The notes under the pieces: model-generated
Seen by the model: the letters and a program-made list of their open reading frames with translations, nothing else
Told to the model about the DNA's origin: nothing
Databases searched by the model: none
Program-made: the position numbers and the translations under genes
Shown: positions 1,068-35,008 of the stretch, piece by piece
Layout of the letters: each line of letters begins with the position of its first letter
Numbering within the stretch: the first letter of the stretch is position 1
Origin: Gammaproteobacteria bacterium
Lineage (GTDB): Bacteria; Pseudomonadota; Gammaproteobacteria; GCA-2400775
Length of the DNA stretch: 35,804 nucleotides
Assembly (NCBI GenBank): GCA_002400775.1
Contig: NVRF01000003.1
Coordinates: 563-36,366, forward strand
Direction: 5' to 3'

Positions 1068-1989
1068 TACCCTTTTGTTTTTCCATTGCCGATTTTGCTA
1101 ATTCGGTAATACCACCAATGGCTCCGATGACACTAGCCGCCTCTAGCGGCATAAAGACCAGTTTATGATTGGGCGCACTACCAATTTTTTCCAGTGCCTT
1201 AATATAGTTATTGGCGACAAAATAATTAATAGCATTAATATCACCAGCGCTGATCGCATTTGACACCACGGTTGTCGCTTTAGCTTCTGCTTCGGCTAAA
1301 CGTTCACGCGCCTCGGCATCGCGAAACGCAGCTTCCTTACGTCCTTCCGCCTCAAGAATGGCCGCCTGCTTTTCACCGTCTGCCTTAAGAATTTCTGACT
1401 GCTTAACACCCTCAGCATCAAGAATCGCCGCGCGTTTTAAACGCTCGGCCTTCATTTGTCGAGATAATGCCTCAACGAGGTCTTTTGGTGGCTGAATATC
1501 CTTAATTTCGATACGCGTAACTTTAACCCCCCAAGGCGTGGTGGCATCATCGACCACGTCGAGTAACTGTGCATTAATTTTGTCACGCTGGGATAATAAT
1601 TCATCCAGATCCATCGAACCCATAACGGTACGGATATTGGTCATGGTCAAATTCAATATAGCCCGTTGCAGATCGTTGACTTCATAGGCTGCCTTAGCCG
1701 CATCAAGCACTTGAAAAAACACAACGCCATCAGCGCTAATCATGGCATTGTCGCGCGTAATAACTTCCTGCGATTGCACATCAAGCACCGTTTCCATCAT
1801 ATTTAACTTGGCACCGATTTTATCTACAACAGGAACAATAAAATGCAAACCCGGCGCTAACGTCCTGGTATAACGACCAAAACGCTCTACCGTATATTCC
1901 ATTCCCTGCGATACCGATTTCACACCTTGGAATAAGACCACCACCGCCAATATCACCATGGCAATTACAAATATATCTGCTGTACCCAT
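1054..1989 (-). CDS. qmcA: SPFH/band 7 membrane protein, QmcA-like (paraslipin class)
   Basis: A stomatin/prohibitin-family protein anchored by one N-terminal hydrophobic helix (IFVIAMVILAVVVLF). The SPFH core begins with SQGMEYTVERFGRYTRTL and PGLHFIVPVVDKI, and includes RTVMGSMDLDELLSQRD and WGVKVTRIEIKDIQPP. A long Ala/Glu-rich coiled-coil follows (repeats of AEG..QAAILEAEG), then an oligomerisation C-terminus. It probably forms large membrane rings with the NfeD partner encoded immediately downstream and overlapping it. An upstream GTG at 2001 lies inside the ribosome-binding site (AGGTGGG, 7 nt before the ATG at 1989), so I take the ATG, giving 311 residues. The gene corresponds to E. 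coli qmcA, which is likewise followed by an NfeD-like gene. Confidence 0.9.
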   Translation of the reverse strand: MGTADIFVIAMVILAVVVLFQGVKSVSQGMEYTVERFGRYTRTLAPGLHFIVPVVDKIGAKLNMMETVLDVQSQEVITRDNAMISADGVVFFQVLDAAKAAYEVNDLQRAILNLTMTNIRTVMGSMDLDELLSQRDKINAQLLDVVDDATTPWGVKVTRIEIKDIQPPKDLVEALSRQMKAERLKRAAILDAEGVKQSEILKADGEKQAAILEAEGRKEAAFRDAEARERLAEAEAKATTVVSNAISAGDINAINYFVANNYIKALEKIGSAPNHKLVFMPLEAASVIGAIGGITELAKSAMEKQKGSDNA

Positions 1990-28145: not shown

Positions 28146-29522
28146 ATGAAATCTGTTTTTTTCTCCGTATTTTCAATATTTTTTGCAATATTACTCTGCA
28201 ATAAACTTGTGTATGCTTCTCACGTCATTCCAAACCAGTATATTGTTGTCTTTAAAGATCAGAACATGAATGTTCCGGCAAAAGCCAATATTGCCGAAAC
28301 AGGTGAGCTAGTTAAGCAAGCCTGCGAACGTTTAATGACTGAGGTAAAGCAAAATCAGTTTTTAGTTAAAAACAGACGTGGTAGAAGAGCACAAAGAAAC
28401 ACAATACCCAATGAAATGATTTCGGTTTATGAGCATGCTCTGAAAGGATTTTCAGCCACGCTAACTCCTGCCGCCATAGCATATTTGAAAAACAAACCAG
28501 AAATTGCTTATATCGAAGCAGATGGAATCGTCACACCGAGTGTAGTGCAGGTCTCCCCCCCGTCATACGGACTGGATCGGGTTGATCAGCGAAATCTGCC
28601 GCTTGACCGGTCGTATACATTTAACACAGATGGTAGCGGTGTTCATCTTTATGTTATTGATTCCGGTATCAGAACTACACATGCTGAATTTGTTGGCAGA
28701 ATTGATAATGGTTTTGATTTTGTCGATAACGATACCAACCCTAGCGATTGCAATGGGCACGGCACACATGTTACTGGTACAGCAGCCGGCACCAATCACG
28801 GTATCGCTAAAAATGTCACCATACATCCGGTACGTGTCTTTGGCTGTTCAGGCGACACCTCTTTTAGCGTAATTATTTCAGCTATAAATTGGGTTGTGAA
28901 TAACTTGCAGCTACCTGCTGTAACAAATATGAGCTTGGGTGGTAATCGCAGCACAACGATCGATACTGCGGTCAACAACCTGATCAACAGCGGTGCAACA
29001 GTCACTGTCGCCGCTGGCAACAGCGGCAGTAATGCGTGCGCCGAAAGCCCTGCGGGCGTAGCCAATGCAATCACTGTTGCGTCTTCCACCTCCACAGATC
29101 AGCGATCAGGTTTTTCCAATATTGGGCAATGTGTTGACCTGTTTGCACCGGGGAGTGCCATCCCATCCACTTGGTGGACTGGCGATACAGCAACTATGAT
29201 TTTAAGTGGGACGTCTATGTCGTCGCCGCATGTGGCTGGGGTAGCAGCACTATACCTTCAGCAAAACCCAACTGCATCACCTGCGCAAGTAGCCAATGCT
29301 GTCATTAGCGGCTCAACCACCAACGCAATTGCTAATGCAGGGGCTGGCACGCCCAACCGACTCCTTTACAGTGCACTAACCGAAGAACAACCACCGATAG
29401 TGGAAGAGCCACCTGTGGTGGAAGAGCCACCTGCAGTGGAAGAGCCACCTGCAGTGGAAGAGCCACCTGTAGTGGAAGAGCAGCCTACCCGGCGACAAAG
29501 ACACCGCCGCCGGCACCGCTAA
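28146..29522 (+). CDS. Secreted subtilisin-like serine protease (S8, proteinase K type) with PPxVEE tail
   Basis: A 458-residue pre-pro-protease. The signal peptide is about 1-25. An inhibitor I9 propeptide follows (about 28-125, IPNQYIVVFKDQN through ALKGFSATLTPAAIAYLKN and IAYIEADG). The catalytic domain is about 138-410 with Asp172 (YVIDSGIRTTH), His205 (NGHGTHVTGTAAG), the oxyanion Asn in AAGNSG and Ser357 (SGTSMSSPHVAGVAALYL). Four or more Cys residues in the domain fit disulfide-stabilised proteinase-K relatives. The C-terminus has five 6-residue repeats PPxVEE and a basic RRQRHRRRHR end, not a known anchor. It is preceded by AAGGAATG and lies beside two dead IS elements. It probably degrades extracellular protein after autoprocessing. 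Confidence 0.93.
   Translation: MKSVFFSVFSIFFAILLCNKLVYASHVIPNQYIVVFKDQNMNVPAKANIAETGELVKQACERLMTEVKQNQFLVKNRRGRRAQRNTIPNEMISVYEHALKGFSATLTPAAIAYLKNKPEIAYIEADGIVTPSVVQVSPPSYGLDRVDQRNLPLDRSYTFNTDGSGVHLYVIDSGIRTTHAEFVGRIDNGFDFVDNDTNPSDCNGHGTHVTGTAAGTNHGIAKNVTIHPVRVFGCSGDTSFSVIISAINWVVNNLQLPAVTNMSLGGNRSTTIDTAVNNLINSGATVTVAAGNSGSNACAESPAGVANAITVASSTSTDQRSGFSNIGQCVDLFAPGSAIPSTWWTGDTATMILSGTSMSSPHVAGVAALYLQQNPTASPAQVANAVISGSTTNAIANAGAGTPNRLLYSALTEEQPPIVEEPPVVEEPPAVEEPPAVEEPPVVEEQPTRRQRHRRRHR
29391..29480 (+). repeat. Five 18-bp tandem repeats encoding PPxVEE
   Basis: Units of CCACCTGYRGTGGAAGAG run in frame inside the protease tail, with x being I, V, A, A, V. The near-identity of units at the DNA level makes copy number prone to change. 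Confidence 0.9.
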
Positions 29523-30190
29523 AATTAGTATAGATAAGGAGCCGCCCCACGAAGAAGATTATAAAACTTAGGGGTAAGACCAAGTCTATCGATAATTGTC
29601 TCCGTTTCTCAGCCTAGCGAAATAAAAAATGCCCACCGATTGGGGTGGGCATAAATTACCAGAACAAATCCAGGCTTCCCTATTAGAATTGCTATACCAA
29701 CAACACCCTTGACACTCATGGTAAGGTCGCCAGCTTCATCAATACGATGGTGCCGTAGTTAACGTGTTTTTTTCTTCTTGAAATGTCGCAACAGACGGCA
29801 GACAGGTTGACAATAAATTTTCATTTGGAATTATGGGGCGGTGCAGTCCGTGTATCGGCTAGTGGTTCTAAGTCGTTTACCACTTGCGATCGTCCCACAC
29901 GCCATAACAAGGAATTTTTCATAAAGACTAAAACATAAGAAAGTCCAAACTATAGAAGAGGTATTTGAATACTCATGTATAAATTCCTAATAAAACTAAG
30001 AATTCTCCATTTTGAGTAAATTTTTTGGGTATGAGGAACATCAACTACTCTGAAGCAAAATATAGATAGGTAAATGCCCACTTTTTAATGAACGTGCATA
30101 AAAAAACTCGCTTTTTCAAAAGCTCCGATTCGCGCTTGATTCTTTTTCCTTCTTTAACAAAAAAAACCAGCAAACCCTCGTCGCAAACAT
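29523..30190. other. Gene-free region downstream of the protease
   Basis: About 670 bases without a supportable gene. It contains one hairpin (29631-29650, listed separately) and a stretch at 29720 that resembles an insertion-sequence end (GGTAAGGTCGCCAGCTT), without any transposase. Short open frames near 30045-30240 look non-coding. Confidence 0.5.
29631..29650 (-). terminator. Hairpin with U-run on the minus strand
   Basis: GCCCACC (29631-29637) pairs with GGTGGGC (29644-29650). Read on the minus strand it is followed by ATTTTTT, the layout of an intrinsic terminator. On the plus strand, after the protease, it lacks a T-run but could still slow polymerase. Confidence 0.55.
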
Positions 30191-30218
30191 GTCCGACGCG
30201 GCAAACCCCGCGCCGGAC
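30191..30218 (-). terminator. Conserved 3' RNA hairpin of DUF5666 copy A
   Basis: GTCCGACGCGG (30191-30201) and CCGCGCCGGAC (30208-30218) form an 11-bp stem with a 6-base loop, 52 bases beyond the stop of copy A. The one mismatched position becomes a G-U pair in minus-strand RNA. An equivalent hairpin follows copy B with compensating differences. The nearest U-run on the minus strand is about 20 nt further on, so it may be a 3'-end or stability element rather than a classic terminator. Confidence 0.6.
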
Positions 30219-30270
30219 GCATAGCACTAATACGTCTTATTTTGTCATCAGTGCCGCCACATCACCAATG

Positions 30271-31896
30271 CTACAATCGGACGATACTGTCATCATCTTC
30301 ATCATCTTCATCTTCATCTTCATCTTCATCTTCATCTTCGTCTTCGAAATCATTGAAGCTGAAGCCGAAATCATCATCTTCAAATTCAACTTCATCGGCA
30401 ATACCATCGGCGGGATTCTCATCGTCGATTTCGACAATGCTACCAATTGCCACCCGACTGAAGAATTCGTTGGCGCTGATATCATCATCGTCGTCTTCAA
30501 ATTCGGTTTGACCATCGATAGTGAAGGTCACACCAAGCAATGTGACTGATTGCGCAGCAGCGTCGAAGGACTGTATTGGAGCTTGTATCTCGATGTCACC
30601 ATCATCGTCATCTTCACGCTCAATCTCACTGGCAAAGACATTGCCGCCGACCAGATAGCCTTCAATCTCAAGAAAGTCACCCGTGCGAACATCACTAATA
30701 TTAAATTGCGATCTGTTGTCATCATCGTCGTCTTCATCTTCAAATTGTGTGCTGAAGTTAACGTTGACATCAATGCTTTGCGAGTTAGGAAACATCATGG
30801 TGATGACGTTGTTAACCGGATCGACTGCCTGTACCCGGGATTCTATTTCAACACTGCCACGGCGCTGGTCTATTCTTTCAGCCATCAGAACACCATTTAC
30901 CCGCCTACCCTCGACCTGAATGACTGCGCCATTTGCCAGATTTTCACCCAGGCGTCTGGGCGAAAATCTGGCGCCACTGGCATCAACTCGCTGATTACCG
31001 ATATTGAACTCAGCGTTGCTAACATAATTGTTGACGCTGCCATTAATGCTGAAGTTGAAGTCGTCAAAATCATCACCAAAGCTTTCATCTTCAATTTCGC
31101 GGGCGTTGATCGTGGTAGCATCCAACGCGGCGATGGTACCTTCGACCTCTACTGTTAATCCATTGGCGATCATATCGTTAGGAAGATCATCAAGGACAGT
31201 GCTGCCATCAACATTAACTGTGATGGAGGCATTTGGCGCTAGCCTTAGAACAAAGCTACTACCATTATAATTTTCAACAACACCGTGCGCCTCGACTTCG
31301 CTTAAATTTGGTGAAAATGATACTCCATCAAGCGCAACATAAGTCGCACGCAACACACCAGTAGTGTCAAAAAATCCACTAATGTCCAAACGATTATTCA
31401 TAGCCACGTTGGCAAAGGTAACCCCACTGCGAAAGACCGTTGATCTCTCGTCAACGGCAACGGTGACACCCAGCACAGAAAAGGTTTTTACCGTGCCATC
31501 AACATTGGGAGCCGGGTTTGTTGCGACCGGGCCTTCAATAACGCTATCAAAGCGAATATTACGGGCGTTACCAGTACGGCTACCGTCAGCGTCACGTGTA
31601 TTGGCCGTACCGTCAACGTGCACGATCATACCCAGCGCTAAATCGTTTTCACTCGCTGGCATATCGTCAATCATGATATTGGCGTCATCTGTATTAAACC
31701 GAATGCCATTAACAAAAACACTACCAAAGCCGGTGATTGCGCCATTCGCACTGACACCCGTGCCAGCAACATCGGAAAAATCTTCACTCACGCCGCCGCC
31801 TCCACCGCCACAGGCGTATAAAACACTGGCAGCAACAATCGATAGTGATCCGTATTTAAGTTTTCTGTTCATCGTTTTTCTAGCATATGTTTTCAT
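30271..31896 (-). CDS. DUF5666 repeat lipoprotein with Glu-Asp tail (copy A)
   Basis: A 541-residue predicted lipoprotein. The lipobox VLYA-Cys29 is followed by a run of six Gly. The body consists of about five repeating beta-rich segments of 70-90 residues, each with forms of V.V(D/E)G and LxxGxxVxVxG (for example GFGSVFVNGIRFNTDDA; LALGMIVHVDGTAN; MIANGLTVEVEGTI; GAVIQVEGRRVNG), as in DUF5666 proteins. Acidic patches occur in the middle (FEDEDDDDDN) and at the end, (ED)n then IVRL. ATG 31896 with AAGGA is used; MNRKL eight residues later equals the start of copy B. It aligns end to end with copy B. Function unknown; cation binding by the acidic segments is a guess. Confidence 0.85.
   Translation of the reverse strand: MKTYARKTMNRKLKYGSLSIVAASVLYACGGGGGGVSEDFSDVAGTGVSANGAITGFGSVFVNGIRFNTDDANIMIDDMPASENDLALGMIVHVDGTANTRDADGSRTGNARNIRFDSVIEGPVATNPAPNVDGTVKTFSVLGVTVAVDERSTVFRSGVTFANVAMNNRLDISGFFDTTGVLRATYVALDGVSFSPNLSEVEAHGVVENYNGSSFVLRLAPNASITVNVDGSTVLDDLPNDMIANGLTVEVEGTIAALDATTINAREIEDESFGDDFDDFNFSINGSVNNYVSNAEFNIGNQRVDASGARFSPRRLGENLANGAVIQVEGRRVNGVLMAERIDQRRGSVEIESRVQAVDPVNNVITMMFPNSQSIDVNVNFSTQFEDEDDDDDNRSQFNISDVRTGDFLEIEGYLVGGNVFASEIEREDDDDGDIEIQAPIQSFDAAAQSVTLLGVTFTIDGQTEFEDDDDDISANEFFSRVAIGSIVEIDDENPADGIADEVEFEDDDFGFSFNDFEDEDEDEDEDEDEDDEDDDSIVRL
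30291..30346 (-). repeat. Triplet run encoding the Glu-Asp tail of copy A
   Basis: About 18 consecutive ATC/TTC/GTC triplets (plus strand) encode alternating Asp and Glu in copy A. The core is a near-perfect ATCTTC hexamer repeat, a likely site of replication slippage in steps of whole codons. The antisense frame reads poly-Ser or poly-Phe/Ile and is not a gene. Confidence 0.85.
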
Positions 31897-31918
31897 GGTT
31901 CATTCCTTATATTTTTCA

Positions 31919-31980
31919 TCAAGAAAGAGAGCGTATTATCGTACTAATACATCCCTGGTAGACTCCTAGATTGACATAGG
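31919..31980 (-). pseudogene. Relic of the 3' end of a DUF6502 gene
   Basis: A TGA at 31919-31921 lies exactly 22 nt upstream of the copy A start, as the DUF6502 stop lies 22 nt upstream of copy B. The preceding bases, read on the minus strand, align with the last codons of that gene (TATTAGTACGATAATAC against TATTACTACGACAATAC, then TTTCTTGA against TTTCTTAA), with a 4-base indel. It appears to be the residue of a second DUF6502 copy. Confidence 0.55.
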
Positions 31981-32158
31981 AAATCTGTTTATAGTTATTA
32001 TCATCTTCCTGAAACACTGCCACCGTCACTCAAAGCAGCGTGCAAAAATCCAATGAACTCAGATCTAAAATATTCCATAACTCAATGTCACTATACGTAA
32101 ATAAGATGAAGGATCGCCTAACAAAAAGATTAAGAATAAATTAAGGGAGATGAAGATT

Positions 32159-32284
32159 ATGGCTTTTCATCAGACCACTTTAGCTCAAGAAATCGTGGCA
32201 ACAATTAAAGAAATTGATTCGGTCACTTTCAGCAGAGACAGCGTTAATAATATATCGATACATAAAAAATACCCACTACGATAA
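32159..32284 (+). CDS. Possible small protein of 41 residues
   Basis: An open frame on the opposite strand within the 525-bp gap between the DUF5666 copies. AAGGGAG stands nine bases before ATG 32159 (an in-frame ATG at 32150 is too close). The product begins MAFHQTTLAQEIVATIKEID and ends HKKYPLR, amphipathic but with no family I recognise. Only the ribosome-binding site and the amphipathic helix support it. It could be a chance frame. Confidence 0.25.
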   Translation: MAFHQTTLAQEIVATIKEIDSVTFSRDSVNNISIHKKYPLR

Positions 32285-32375
32285 CTAACACTCGCCCTTT
32301 AGCTGCCTGATACCAACATAATATTTTGATTTTCTTGTTTTAGTTAGTATTTTTAAATGTCAGCTGACAAAATAC

Positions 32376-32402
32376 GTTCGGCGCGGCAACCCCACACCGA
32401 AC
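32376..32402 (-). terminator. Conserved 3' RNA hairpin of DUF5666 copy B
   Basis: GTTCGGCGCGG (32376-32386) and CCACACCGAAC (32392-32402) with a 5-base loop, 19 bases beyond the copy B stop. Two positions mismatch in plus-strand RNA but become G-U pairs in minus-strand RNA, and GUAUUUUG follows. Together with the copy A hairpin this supports a conserved RNA structure. Confidence 0.62.
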
Positions 32403-32421
32403 GCTTAACCTTGATTACAAC

Positions 32422-34002
32422 CTATCTACCATCATCGTCATCGTCATCGTCATCATCGTCGTCGTCATCGTCATCGTCGTCGTCTTCAAAGTCATTGAAG
32501 CTAAAGCCGAAGTCATCGTCATCAAATTCGACTTCATCAGCGATGCCATCTCCGACTCCATTGTCTTCGATTTCAACAACGTCACCGATCATCACCCGGC
32601 GGAAGAATTCGTCGGCGTTGATATCGTTATCGTTATCTTCAAATTCAGTTTGACCGTTAGTGGTGAAGGTTACACCAAGTATTGTGAGCGATGGCACCAT
32701 AGGATCGAAGGCCCCTACCGGACCTTGCAGTTCGATAAAATCATCGTCATCGTCATCGTCATCGTCGCGCTCGACCTCACTGGCAAAAACAGCGCCGCCA
32801 ACCAGATAGCCTTCAATCTCAAGCAAATCATTAATGCGGATATCGTTGATGCTAAATCGCTGTGACCCGTTGTCATCATCGTCATCAAACTGTGTACTAA
32901 AGGTAACGTTGACGTTGATGCTTTGGTTGTTGGGAAACATCATAGTGATGACGTTGTTGGCCGGATCAACTGCCTGAACCCGGGACTCTATTTCAACATT
33001 GCCACGACGCTGTTCAATGCTGTCAGCGATCAGGGTACCGTTCACCACACTGCCCTCAACCTGAACAACCGCGCCATTACCCAAGTTGGCTCCCAGACGT
33101 GCAGGTAAAAAACGAGCGCCACTGGCATTGATCAGCCAACTGCCAATATTGAAGAACTGAGTGTTGCTATTATAATTACTGATGCTGCCCGTGATGCTGA
33201 AGTTATCAACTTCATCGTCGAAGCGTTCCTCTTCCACTTCTCTGGCGTTGATGATGGTTGCATCCAACGATGCGATAGTGCCATCGACTTCGACCTGCAA
33301 TCCATTGGCGATCATATTATTGGGAAGATCAGAAAGGTTAGTGCTGCCATCAACATTGACCATGATGATTACTCCTGGAGCGAGTCTCAAATCAAAGCTG
33401 TTACCGTTAAAGTTCTCAACAACACCACGTGCCTCGACTTCGCTAACACCAGGGAAGAATGCCGGTTCGTCGAGCGCGACATAAGTCGCACGCAACACGC
33501 CGTTAGCGTCAAAAAATCCACTGATGTCCAAATGGTTATTCATAGCCACGTTAGCAAAGGTAACCCCACTGCGAAAGACTGTTGATCTCTCGTCAACGGC
33601 AACCATAACGCCAAGCACTAAAAAGGTTTTTTCTGTACCGTCGGCGTTAGCTTGCGGGCTTGTTGCGACCGAGCCTTCAATGACGCTATCAAAGCGAATG
33701 TTACGGGCGTTACCAGTACGACTACCATCGGCGCCACGTGCATTGGCCGTACCGTCAACGCGCACAACCATACCCAGGGCTAAATCGTTTTCACTTGCTG
33801 GTATGTCGTCGATCATAATATTGGCTCCATCCGTGTCGAATCGAATGCCATTGACAAAGACACTACCAAAACCCGTAATAGCGCCATCGGCACTAATGCC
33901 AGTACCGCCGATACCCGCTGTGTCACCGCCACCGCCACCGCAGGCATATAACACGCTAGCAGCGACAATAGATAGTGATCCGTATGTAAGTTTCCTGTTC
34001 AT
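32422..34002 (-). CDS. DUF5666 repeat lipoprotein with poly-Asp tail (copy B)
   Basis: A 526-residue paralogue of copy A, matching it almost throughout (for example GFGSVFVNGIRFDTDGANIM; NARNIRFDSVIEG; VDERSTVFRSGVTFANVAMNN; VEIESRVQAVDP.NNVITMMFPN). Lipobox VLYA-Cys21 is followed by Gly residues and GIGGTGISADGAITG. It has the same repeated beta-rich modules and a central acidic patch. The C-terminus is FED followed by a run of 18 Asp in all and GR. The ATG at 34002 follows GAGGAAAAT. A longer open frame to 34089 overlaps the upstream DUF6502 gene and is not used. It begins 22 nt after DUF6502, so the two are co-transcribed. Function unknown. Confidence 0.87.
   Translation of the reverse strand: MNRKLTYGSLSIVAASVLYACGGGGGDTAGIGGTGISADGAITGFGSVFVNGIRFDTDGANIMIDDIPASENDLALGMVVRVDGTANARGADGSRTGNARNIRFDSVIEGSVATSPQANADGTEKTFLVLGVMVAVDERSTVFRSGVTFANVAMNNHLDISGFFDANGVLRATYVALDEPAFFPGVSEVEARGVVENFNGNSFDLRLAPGVIIMVNVDGSTNLSDLPNNMIANGLQVEVDGTIASLDATIINAREVEEERFDDEVDNFSITGSISNYNSNTQFFNIGSWLINASGARFLPARLGANLGNGAVVQVEGSVVNGTLIADSIEQRRGNVEIESRVQAVDPANNVITMMFPNNQSINVNVTFSTQFDDDDDNGSQRFSINDIRINDLLEIEGYLVGGAVFASEVERDDDDDDDDDFIELQGPVGAFDPMVPSLTILGVTFTTNGQTEFEDNDNDINADEFFRRVMIGDVVEIEDNGVGDGIADEVEFDDDDFGFSFNDFEDDDDDDDDDDDDDDDDDDGR
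32431..32484 (-). repeat. GAY triplet run encoding 18 Asp in copy B
   Basis: Eighteen consecutive ATC or GTC triplets on the plus strand give GAT/GAC codons, a pure Asp run. The two codons are mixed, so it is less regular than copy A's hexamer repeat, yet still prone to in-frame length change. Confidence 0.9.
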
Positions 34003-34024
34003 GGCATTTTCCTCATATTTTCCA

Positions 34025-34840
34025 TTAAGAAATAGTATTGTCGTAGTAATAAATCCCCATACTGACGTAAGCGTCCTGCTTGACGTCATGAGAACCTTTT
34101 TTAGTTATCTCATGTTGAGAGAGCCAAATATCCAGCTCTTCGAGTAATTGCTGCGCTTTTGCGCGACTAAGTTCCCTAAATTCGGAAAGTGATGATGCCT
34201 CTATAGACACGTTCGACACCTTACGCTGAAAGCGCCGCTGTTCAGGTGCGGCCGTCAGGTTAAAGTCAATAGTCGAGACCAGTTCAGCGCTGTCGGTGCC
34301 GAGAATATTTAAAATATCAACAGGGTCATTACCCGGCAAGTAAGCGTGTTTCAGCAGTTTAACGCTGTCACCTTCCAGCTGAATTGCCTCTGCGTTAGAT
34401 AACACATCAAGCATGGCGCGCACGGGGACATCACCACTGTAATCGCGCACTAAACTGGCAAATGAGGACCGCTCACCTTCAATGGCTAACAGCAACGGCT
34501 GATCATCGCCATTGAGATAACGGGTGTCATTGAGCCAGCCAGCAATCACCCGGGTGGCGCGGTTGTAGCGTTCGTTTACGCCCTGATCGCCGTTCCCATC
34601 AAGTTCAAGCACACGCTTCGATTCTTTGCGTGTCAGACCAGTAAGGGCCGAGATATGAGAGACAGAGGGCTTACGCCCAGGCACGGCAAATTCGGTATTT
34701 GCGGCTTGGACAAAGGCGTGTTTGGCCCATTCAGCGAATTCGCCATAGGACACACCATTGCGCAACAAAATACGCACAAGCGGTTTTAGCAGTTTAAGTA
34801 CAGCTTTTGACAGTGCCAATTTCAGAGATTGATTTTCCAT
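34025..34840 (-). CDS. DUF6502-family protein with helix-turn-helix-like N-terminus
   Basis: A 271-residue soluble protein. The N-terminal third has LKLLKPLVRILLRNGVSYGEFAEWAKHAF-like text (the GVSY.EF...K..FV pattern of DUF6502) and then KPSVSHISALTGLTRKESKRV, which looks like a winged-helix or HTH unit. The middle has VIAGWLNDTRYLN and FASLVRDYSGDVPVRAMLDVL; the end is coiled (LSEFRELSRAKAQQLLEELDIWLSQHE) with a short tail. It is the first gene of the unit with copy B 22 nt downstream; DUF6502 and DUF5666 proteins recur side by side elsewhere to my knowledge. A regulatory role is inference. ATG 34840 is used; the frame is open to 34894. Confidence 0.8.
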   Translation of the reverse strand: MENQSLKLALSKAVLKLLKPLVRILLRNGVSYGEFAEWAKHAFVQAANTEFAVPGRKPSVSHISALTGLTRKESKRVLELDGNGDQGVNERYNRATRVIAGWLNDTRYLNGDDQPLLLAIEGERSSFASLVRDYSGDVPVRAMLDVLSNAEAIQLEGDSVKLLKHAYLPGNDPVDILNILGTDSAELVSTIDFNLTAAPEQRRFQRKVSNVSIEASSLSEFRELSRAKAQQLLEELDIWLSQHEITKKGSHDVKQDAYVSMGIYYYDNTIS

Positions 34841-35008
34841 GTTTGGTAATATATTCCCAAATAAACAAAACCTCAAATAGATATTAGCAATCAACTTCTA
34901 TAGTTTGATAGTTTAAATTCCTAGAGTGCGACAATAAGGAATAGCAAGGGATTATTCTAAAACAAGTGATCTTTTGAAAGCTTATACTTTGACAGGCTCC
35001 TTAGATCA
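34841..35008. promoter_or_regulatory. Leader of the DUF6502-DUF5666 unit
   Basis: An AT-rich stretch of about 170 bases upstream of the DUF6502 start that should contain the unit's promoter on the minus strand. No specific -35/-10 or operator could be picked out. Confidence 0.3.

What the first reader, a model, noticed from the sequence alone, without database searches (positions are those of the whole stretch)
30191..32402. Paired 3' hairpins with compensatory changes after both DUF5666 genes
Both copies are followed by an 11-bp stem at 30191-30218 and 32376-32402. Pair 3 is C-G in copy A and U-A in copy B, a covarying change. Pairs 6, 7 and 9 differ only between Watson-Crick and G-U when read as minus-strand RNA, while the same positions mismatch in plus-strand RNA. 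This is the signature of a structured mRNA 3' end rather than a DNA site. Copy B's is followed by a short U-run, copy A's is not, so the role may include stability or processing.
Basis: seen in the sequence. Interest (0 to 1): 0.65.

Follow-up and report, generated by a model that had tools for sequence, protein, structure and literature searches.

The report
Hairpins capping DUF5666 gene transcripts
Two neighbouring bacterial genes of unknown function each end in an RNA hairpin that was kept while the sequence around it changed, and relatives of these genes often carry a similar hairpin at the same spot; it most likely marks and protects the end of the messenger RNA, which is a known kind of element.

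Summary
The hairpins are real and exactly as described. A same-genus genome (G001) has a single DUF5666 gene, orthologous to copy B, with a third version. Across the three, all 33 cells of the 11-pair stem pair as sense-strand (minus) RNA; 28 of 33 do as antisense. The element is not dispersed: a covariance model finds only these three in five genus genomes, and no sequence homologue in 20 other DUF5666 loci.

The wider test is stronger. In 116 DUF5666 3' ends from 47 other families, 61 have a strong hairpin (-15 kcal/mol or below), at a median of 17 nt after the stop. Other genes of the same loci: 44 of 259. Wobble cells favour sense G-U over antisense 46 to 15; controls show 17 to 23. At DUF5666-to-DUF6502 junctions, 12 of 16 have a strong hairpin, none with a U-tract.

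Best reading: a 3' mRNA hairpin that defines and protects the DUF5666 transcript end. B and G001 are weak, probably leaky terminators; A and the operon-internal ones are exonuclease barriers, as in malE-malF and SRPS operons. Known mechanism, undescribed gene pair. No RNA data were available.

The parts
30191..30218 (-). Hairpin A: 11-pair stem, 6-nt loop (GGUUUG), about 50 nt after the stop codon of copy A; no U-tract directly after it
32374..32404 (-). Hairpin B: 11-pair core (32376-32402) extendable to 13 pairs, 5-nt loop, about 17 nt after the stop codon of copy B; followed by AUUUUGUC
30271..31896 (-). DUF5666 gene copy A (541 aa as listed; lipoprotein-like N-terminus by eye, acidic C-terminal tail)
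   Evidence: signal/lipobox reading is mine
32422..34002 (-). DUF5666 gene copy B (526 aa), 75% identical to copy A in protein by the genome search
34025..34894 (-). DUF6502 gene just upstream of copy B; conserved partner of DUF5666
30159..30166 (-). Run of 8 U that begins 24 nt beyond the stem of hairpin A, with only a weak local stem before it
29629..29652 (-). Canonical intrinsic terminator, about 540 nt downstream of hairpin A on the same strand; likely back-stop for copy A read-through

Best explanation
Each hairpin is a 3'-untranslated-region RNA structure on the sense (minus) strand that forms the stable end of a DUF5666 mRNA. Shown: position, sense-only pairing, and conservation beyond flanks and across paralogues. 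Also shown: class-wide enrichment of strong hairpins after DUF5666 stops, and lack of a U-tract when DUF6502 follows in the same direction. Inferred: the stem blocks 3'-to-5' exonucleases, so the DUF5666 part of the transcript outlives what lies downstream. After copy B and in G001, the 4-U tail makes it also a weak, probably leaky intrinsic terminator, leaving some read-through towards copy A. After copy A, transcription runs on (to the run of 8 U, the terminator at 29652, or Rho) and is trimmed back to the hairpin. The likely purpose is more DUF5666 product than its operon partner.
For: Three hairpins (A, B, G001) keep all 33 of 33 stem cells in sense and 28 of 33 in antisense. Third-codon-position identity between A and B is 59% (dS 0.91), and flanks outside the hairpin align poorly while the hairpin aligns almost throughout. 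B and G001 stay alike only to about 70 nt past the stop, just beyond the hairpin. The model finds only these 3 in 5 genus genomes, next E about 3, so it is not a dispersed repeat. DUF5666 ends with a hairpin of -15 or below: 63 of 118 with the window genus, 61 of 116 without; other genes 44 of 259 (convergent 31 of 121, same-strand 13 of 138); shuffled DUF5666 ends 22 of 590. Odds ratio 5.5 after adjusting for G+C and orientation, bootstrap 3.2-9.2. Sense G-U 46 against antisense 15; 19 against 4 families; composition-corrected p 3e-5; controls 17 against 23. DUF5666-to-DUF6502: 12 of 16 strong, 0 of 16 with a U-tract; reverse junctions with gap of 40 or more: 3 of 16. Precedent: U-less hairpins after the stabilised upstream gene (PMC5927463 section 7; PMC4423207 passages).
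Against: No RNA-seq, Term-seq or decay data for this organism. 55 of 116 DUF5666 ends outside the genus lack a strong simple hairpin. 22 of 118 ends have hairpin plus U-tract, i.e. plain terminators, so a general enrichment of well-terminated, perhaps highly expressed genes could explain part of it. In the window DUF6502 lies upstream, not downstream, so the ratio-setting idea applies only to B over A or to unknown downstream RNA. Copy B's hairpin passes the tool's terminator scan and a recalled terminator score is slightly positive for its 12-pair form. The column-shuffle test on three sequences alone is not significant.
Confidence: 0.66

Rival explanations
1. Ordinary intrinsic (Rho-independent) terminators: B and G001 are functional ones with a short U-tract, and A is a decayed copy whose U-tract was lost after duplication. 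No role beyond termination.
For: B is the only terminator-like site in 31850-32430 (found also). Recalled d'Aubenton Carafa score +4.3 (B) and +10.0 (G001) for the 12-pair form. 22 of 118 DUF5666 ends carry hairpin plus U-tract.
Against: A's stem is as stable as B's and kept its pairs although the U-tract is absent; a decayed terminator should lose pairs. The score falls to -6.5 and -1.3 when the full 13-pair stem is used, and is -14.8 for A. 41 of the 63 strong DUF5666 hairpins have no U-tract, and none of the 16 DUF5666-DUF6502 junctions has one.
Confidence: 0.24
2. A DNA-level inverted repeat, for example an operator for the adjacent DUF6502 protein or a mobile-element end.
For: Palindromic stems next to a gene that could encode a regulator (DUF6502, function unknown); B and G001 also share a TGTCARCTGACA near-palindrome just after the hairpin.
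Against: Changes keep pairing only in sense RNA (class-wide 46 against 15); a DNA site has no strand preference. Only three copies in five genus genomes. No DNA-binding fold was found for DUF6502 (only weak hits to designed helical proteins; the fold is of very low confidence).
Confidence: 0.04
3. A regulatory RNA domain (3'-UTR-derived sRNA, riboswitch-like or protein-bound element) specific to this genus, with the conserved loop GGUU(U)G as contact site.
For: Loop and loop-closing bases are almost unchanged in all three copies.
Against: No Rfam family at or near its gathering score in 29500-34200. No sequence homologue in other DUF5666 loci. A single short hairpin with three sequences cannot show loop selection.
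Confidence: 0.06

Closest known systems
3' protective hairpins of differentially decaying operons (malE-malF type; PMC5927463, section 7 and passages read)
   Same: Stable hairpin after an upstream gene, usually no uridine tract, thought to resist 3'-to-5' exonucleases; position conserved between relatives.
   Different: There RNA ends and half-lives were measured; here only sequence. Many of theirs lie inside the next coding sequence; these lie shortly after the stop codon. In the window the partner DUF6502 is upstream.
Selective RNA processing and stabilisation (SRPS) stem-loops, e.g. cip-cel (PMC4423207 passages; PMC8219983 abstract and outline)
   Same: Stem-loops at 3' ends of highly expressed operon members, most not followed by a U run; stem-loops kept between related species.
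   Different: Clostridia, shown with processing sites and transcript ratios; no processing site known here.
Internal leaky terminators after substrate-binding protein genes (PMC9045158, abstract and outline only)
   Same: Long GC-rich stem with a lower-U tract after an exported-protein gene, as for B and G001.
   Different: Termination efficiency was studied there; not here.
Canonical intrinsic terminators
   Same: GC-rich stem close to the stop; B and G001 have 4 U in a row after it.
   Different: A and most of the strong DUF5666 hairpins lack a U-tract.
REP elements
   Same: Extragenic palindrome near a 3' end.
   Different: Not repeated: three copies in five genus genomes, each after a DUF5666 gene.

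Membership tests
3' protective (exonuclease-blocking) mRNA hairpin | Stable hairpin directly after the protected gene, on the sense strand | tested here: met
   class-wide sense bias
3' protective (exonuclease-blocking) mRNA hairpin | No uridine tract of the intrinsic-terminator type | tested here: inconclusive
   Met for A; B and G001 have 4 consecutive U. Class-wide 41 of 63 strong hairpins without U-tract
3' protective (exonuclease-blocking) mRNA hairpin | Followed by co-transcribed, less stable RNA | tested here: inconclusive
   Copy A lies 525 nt after copy B on the same strand, with no sigma-70-like promoter match in between; co-transcription unknown. 12 of 16 DUF5666-DUF6502 junctions carry a strong hairpin
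3' protective (exonuclease-blocking) mRNA hairpin | Mapped RNA 3' end at the hairpin and longer half-life upstream | not testable with these tools
   no RNA data in session
Intrinsic terminator | GC-rich stem of 5 or more pairs, short loop | tested here: met
Intrinsic terminator | U-rich tract directly after the stem | tested here: inconclusive
   B passes the scan (5 T in 8), A does not
REP / dispersed palindrome | Many copies in the genome | tested here: not met
   2 in own genome (52% complete), 1 in G001, none in three others at E below 3
Known Rfam RNA family | Match at the gathering score | tested here: not met
   10 matches in 29500-34200, none near its gathering score, none listed on the hairpins

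The most novel reading that the evidence does not exclude
DUF5666 genes throughout this class carry a position-conserved, sequence-variable 3' hairpin. Where DUF6502 follows in the same direction the hairpin lacks a U-tract and sets a high DUF5666-to-DUF6502 mRNA ratio by selective stabilisation. That would be an evolutionarily maintained post-transcriptional ratio control in a gene pair for which my searches found no functional description.
Probability: 0.4. Interest if true: 0.45.

Novelty: new member of a known kind. Interest (0 to 1): 0.33.

Why it matters
It gives a functional hint on two families with almost no literature in the library searched (DUF5666: 4 papers, seen in a search listing only; DUF6502: 0). 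They form a conserved gene pair whose transcript end seems to be under selection. It also gives a simple sequence-only test, sense G-U against antisense G-U in strand-neutral inverted repeats, that separates RNA hairpins from DNA sites. The mechanism itself is already known in other operons.

Tried and rejected
Rejected: dispersed repeat or mobile end; known RNA family; sequence-homologous hairpin in distant DUF5666 loci. The 44 pattern-matched stretches of genome contigs gave only one distant relative (L052, Vibrio fluminensis, 24% identity). Search by order of G209 held only 6 genomes; the phylum draw gave 21 of 398 genomes with DUF6502, of which a few were fetched. NCBIfam gave nothing for the three proteins. 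DUF6502 profile against the PDB gave 3 weak hits to designed proteins. A single-sequence fold of DUF6502 reached mean pLDDT 41 and was not used; no fold search was run. First hairpin statistics with greedy ORFs were replaced by profile-labelled ones; both agree in direction.

Limits of the counts: 118 of the 133 DUF5666 segments remain after dropping duplicates, ends with under 100 nt of sequence, and ends without a neighbour. Control genes had to have an open segment of 250 aa or more and a gap of 40 nt or more; DUF5666 ends had no gap condition. The detector sees simple stems with at most one mismatch. In one search the hairpin of L122 (-19.5) was cut off by my gap limit and counted as a miss; the one of L094 lies 133 nt from the stop, near DUF6502. 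A different rule gives 9 of 13 for that junction class. The GU test on the junctions alone is not significant (7 against 2).

Full report
What is there. Their sense-strand RNA folds at -24.1 and -23.9 kcal/mol against -18.1 and -13.8 for antisense, and no shuffle of 200 is as stable.

A third copy. Of five genomes held for the genus, only the window's own and G001 have a relative of copy B. G001 carries one DUF5666 gene after a DUF6502 gene, 88% identical to copy B, and its stop codon is followed about 17 nt later by a third hairpin with the same loop. All 33 stem cells of the 11-pair stem pair in sense RNA; 28 of 33 do in antisense. With transitions placed at random on the stem, all pairs survive in 3.7% of simulations; the column-shuffle control is not exceeded (172 of 500), so three sequences alone are suggestive only. 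Between A and B the coding third positions are 59% identical (dS 0.91). The hairpin stays alignable while flanks do not. B and G001 remain alike up to about 70 nt after the stop and then diverge, which fits a transcript end there.

Not a repeat and not a family. A covariance model of the three finds nothing else in the five genus genomes before E about 3, and none of the 20 other DUF5666 loci given to it reaches E below 1. Rfam has no match near a gathering score.

Class-wide test. In 369 genomes of the class, 61 have a relative of copy B at 1e-10 and 99 have DUF6502. I fetched regions around most of these places and labelled genes with profiles made from the sample: 133 DUF5666 and 123 DUF6502 segments, with 89 DUF6502-then-DUF5666 and 16 DUF5666-then-DUF6502 junctions. 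A simple hairpin of -15 kcal/mol or below lies within 100 nt of the stop in 63 of 118 DUF5666 genes (61 of 116 without the window genus, 47 families). For other genes of the same loci the count is 44 of 259: 31 of 121 at convergent ends and 13 of 138 at same-strand ends. Dinucleotide shuffles give 22 of 590. After allowing for G+C and orientation the odds ratio is 5.5 (bootstrap 3.2-9.2), and the median distance from the stop is 17 nt. Of the 63, 22 have a U-tract and 41 do not.

Strand test. I searched the same ends for inverted repeats with a rule blind to strand (G-T and A-C oppositions treated alike). Outside the window genus, strong repeats after DUF5666 genes hold 46 sense G-U and 15 antisense G-U oppositions; 19 families lean to sense and 4 to antisense. 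Control genes give 17 and 23. Base composition predicts no bias (odds 0.94), weak chance repeats in the same ends show 35 and 46, and the composition-corrected p is 3e-5. The ends without U-tract show the bias as well (32 against 13). This supports an RNA role and speaks against a DNA site.

Operon-internal hairpins. At the 16 DUF5666-to-DUF6502 junctions, 12 hold a hairpin of -15 or below and none has a U-tract; in the reverse order, 3 of 16 junctions with at least 40 nt of room do. A hairpin between co-directional genes without a U-tract is what has been described for malE-malF and other E. coli operons, where such structures are read as exonuclease barriers (PMC5927463, section 7 read), and for SRPS operons, where 28 of 33 stem-loops have no U run (PMC4423207, passages). 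Leaky low-U terminators after substrate-binding-protein genes are also described (PMC9045158, abstract).

Mechanism. I take hairpins A, B and G001 as 3' caps of DUF5666 mRNA. For B and G001 the four U after the stem make partial termination likely; a terminator score that I recalled from memory lies between -6.5 and +10 depending on where the stem is cut. A is well below zero (-14.8), so A most likely works by stopping exonucleases after transcription has ended further on, at the 8-U run, at the terminator 29652-29629, or by Rho. That Rho-terminated transcripts are trimmed by 3'-to-5' exonucleases is stated in PMC7815308 (passages). Which share belongs to termination and which to stability cannot be told from sequence.

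Verdict. The element belongs to a known kind (3' stabilising or terminating hairpin). What seems undescribed is its steady association with the DUF5666-DUF6502 gene pair. The library search for these names returned 4 papers (listing only) and 0 papers, which cannot exclude descriptions under other names.

Noticed in passing
window 34894-32422 and related loci L089-L221: DUF6502 directly upstream of DUF5666 is a widely conserved gene pair (89 such junctions in the sample), often as DUF5666-DUF6502-DUF5666; neither family has a known function in the papers searched.
   Followed up: partly
window 32159-32284 (+): A 41-aa ORF with a purine-rich stretch before its ATG lies between copies B and A on the opposite strand; the surrounding 451 bases have no match in the other four genus genomes.
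   Followed up: partly
window 32422-32490 and 30271-30345 (-), L032 about 1680-1700 (-): The C-terminal acidic tail, encoded by GAY/GAR triplet repeats just before the hairpin, differs in length and make-up: Glu-Asp alternation in A, about 18 Asp in B, 8 Asp in G001.
   Followed up: no
window 32352-32373 (-) and L032 about 1605-1628 (-): After the B and G001 hairpins a near-palindrome TGTCARCTGACA followed by TTTAAA is conserved, and similarity ends directly after it.
   Followed up: no
genus genomes G002-G004: Three of the five genus genomes have no DUF5666 match, so the cluster is patchy; G001 has one copy where the window has two.
   Followed up: no
L153 (G047), downstream of its DUF5666 gene: A long REP-like palindrome containing GCGGTCCTTGACCGC follows a DUF5666 gene, suggesting that different palindromes take the same position in other lineages.
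   Followed up: no
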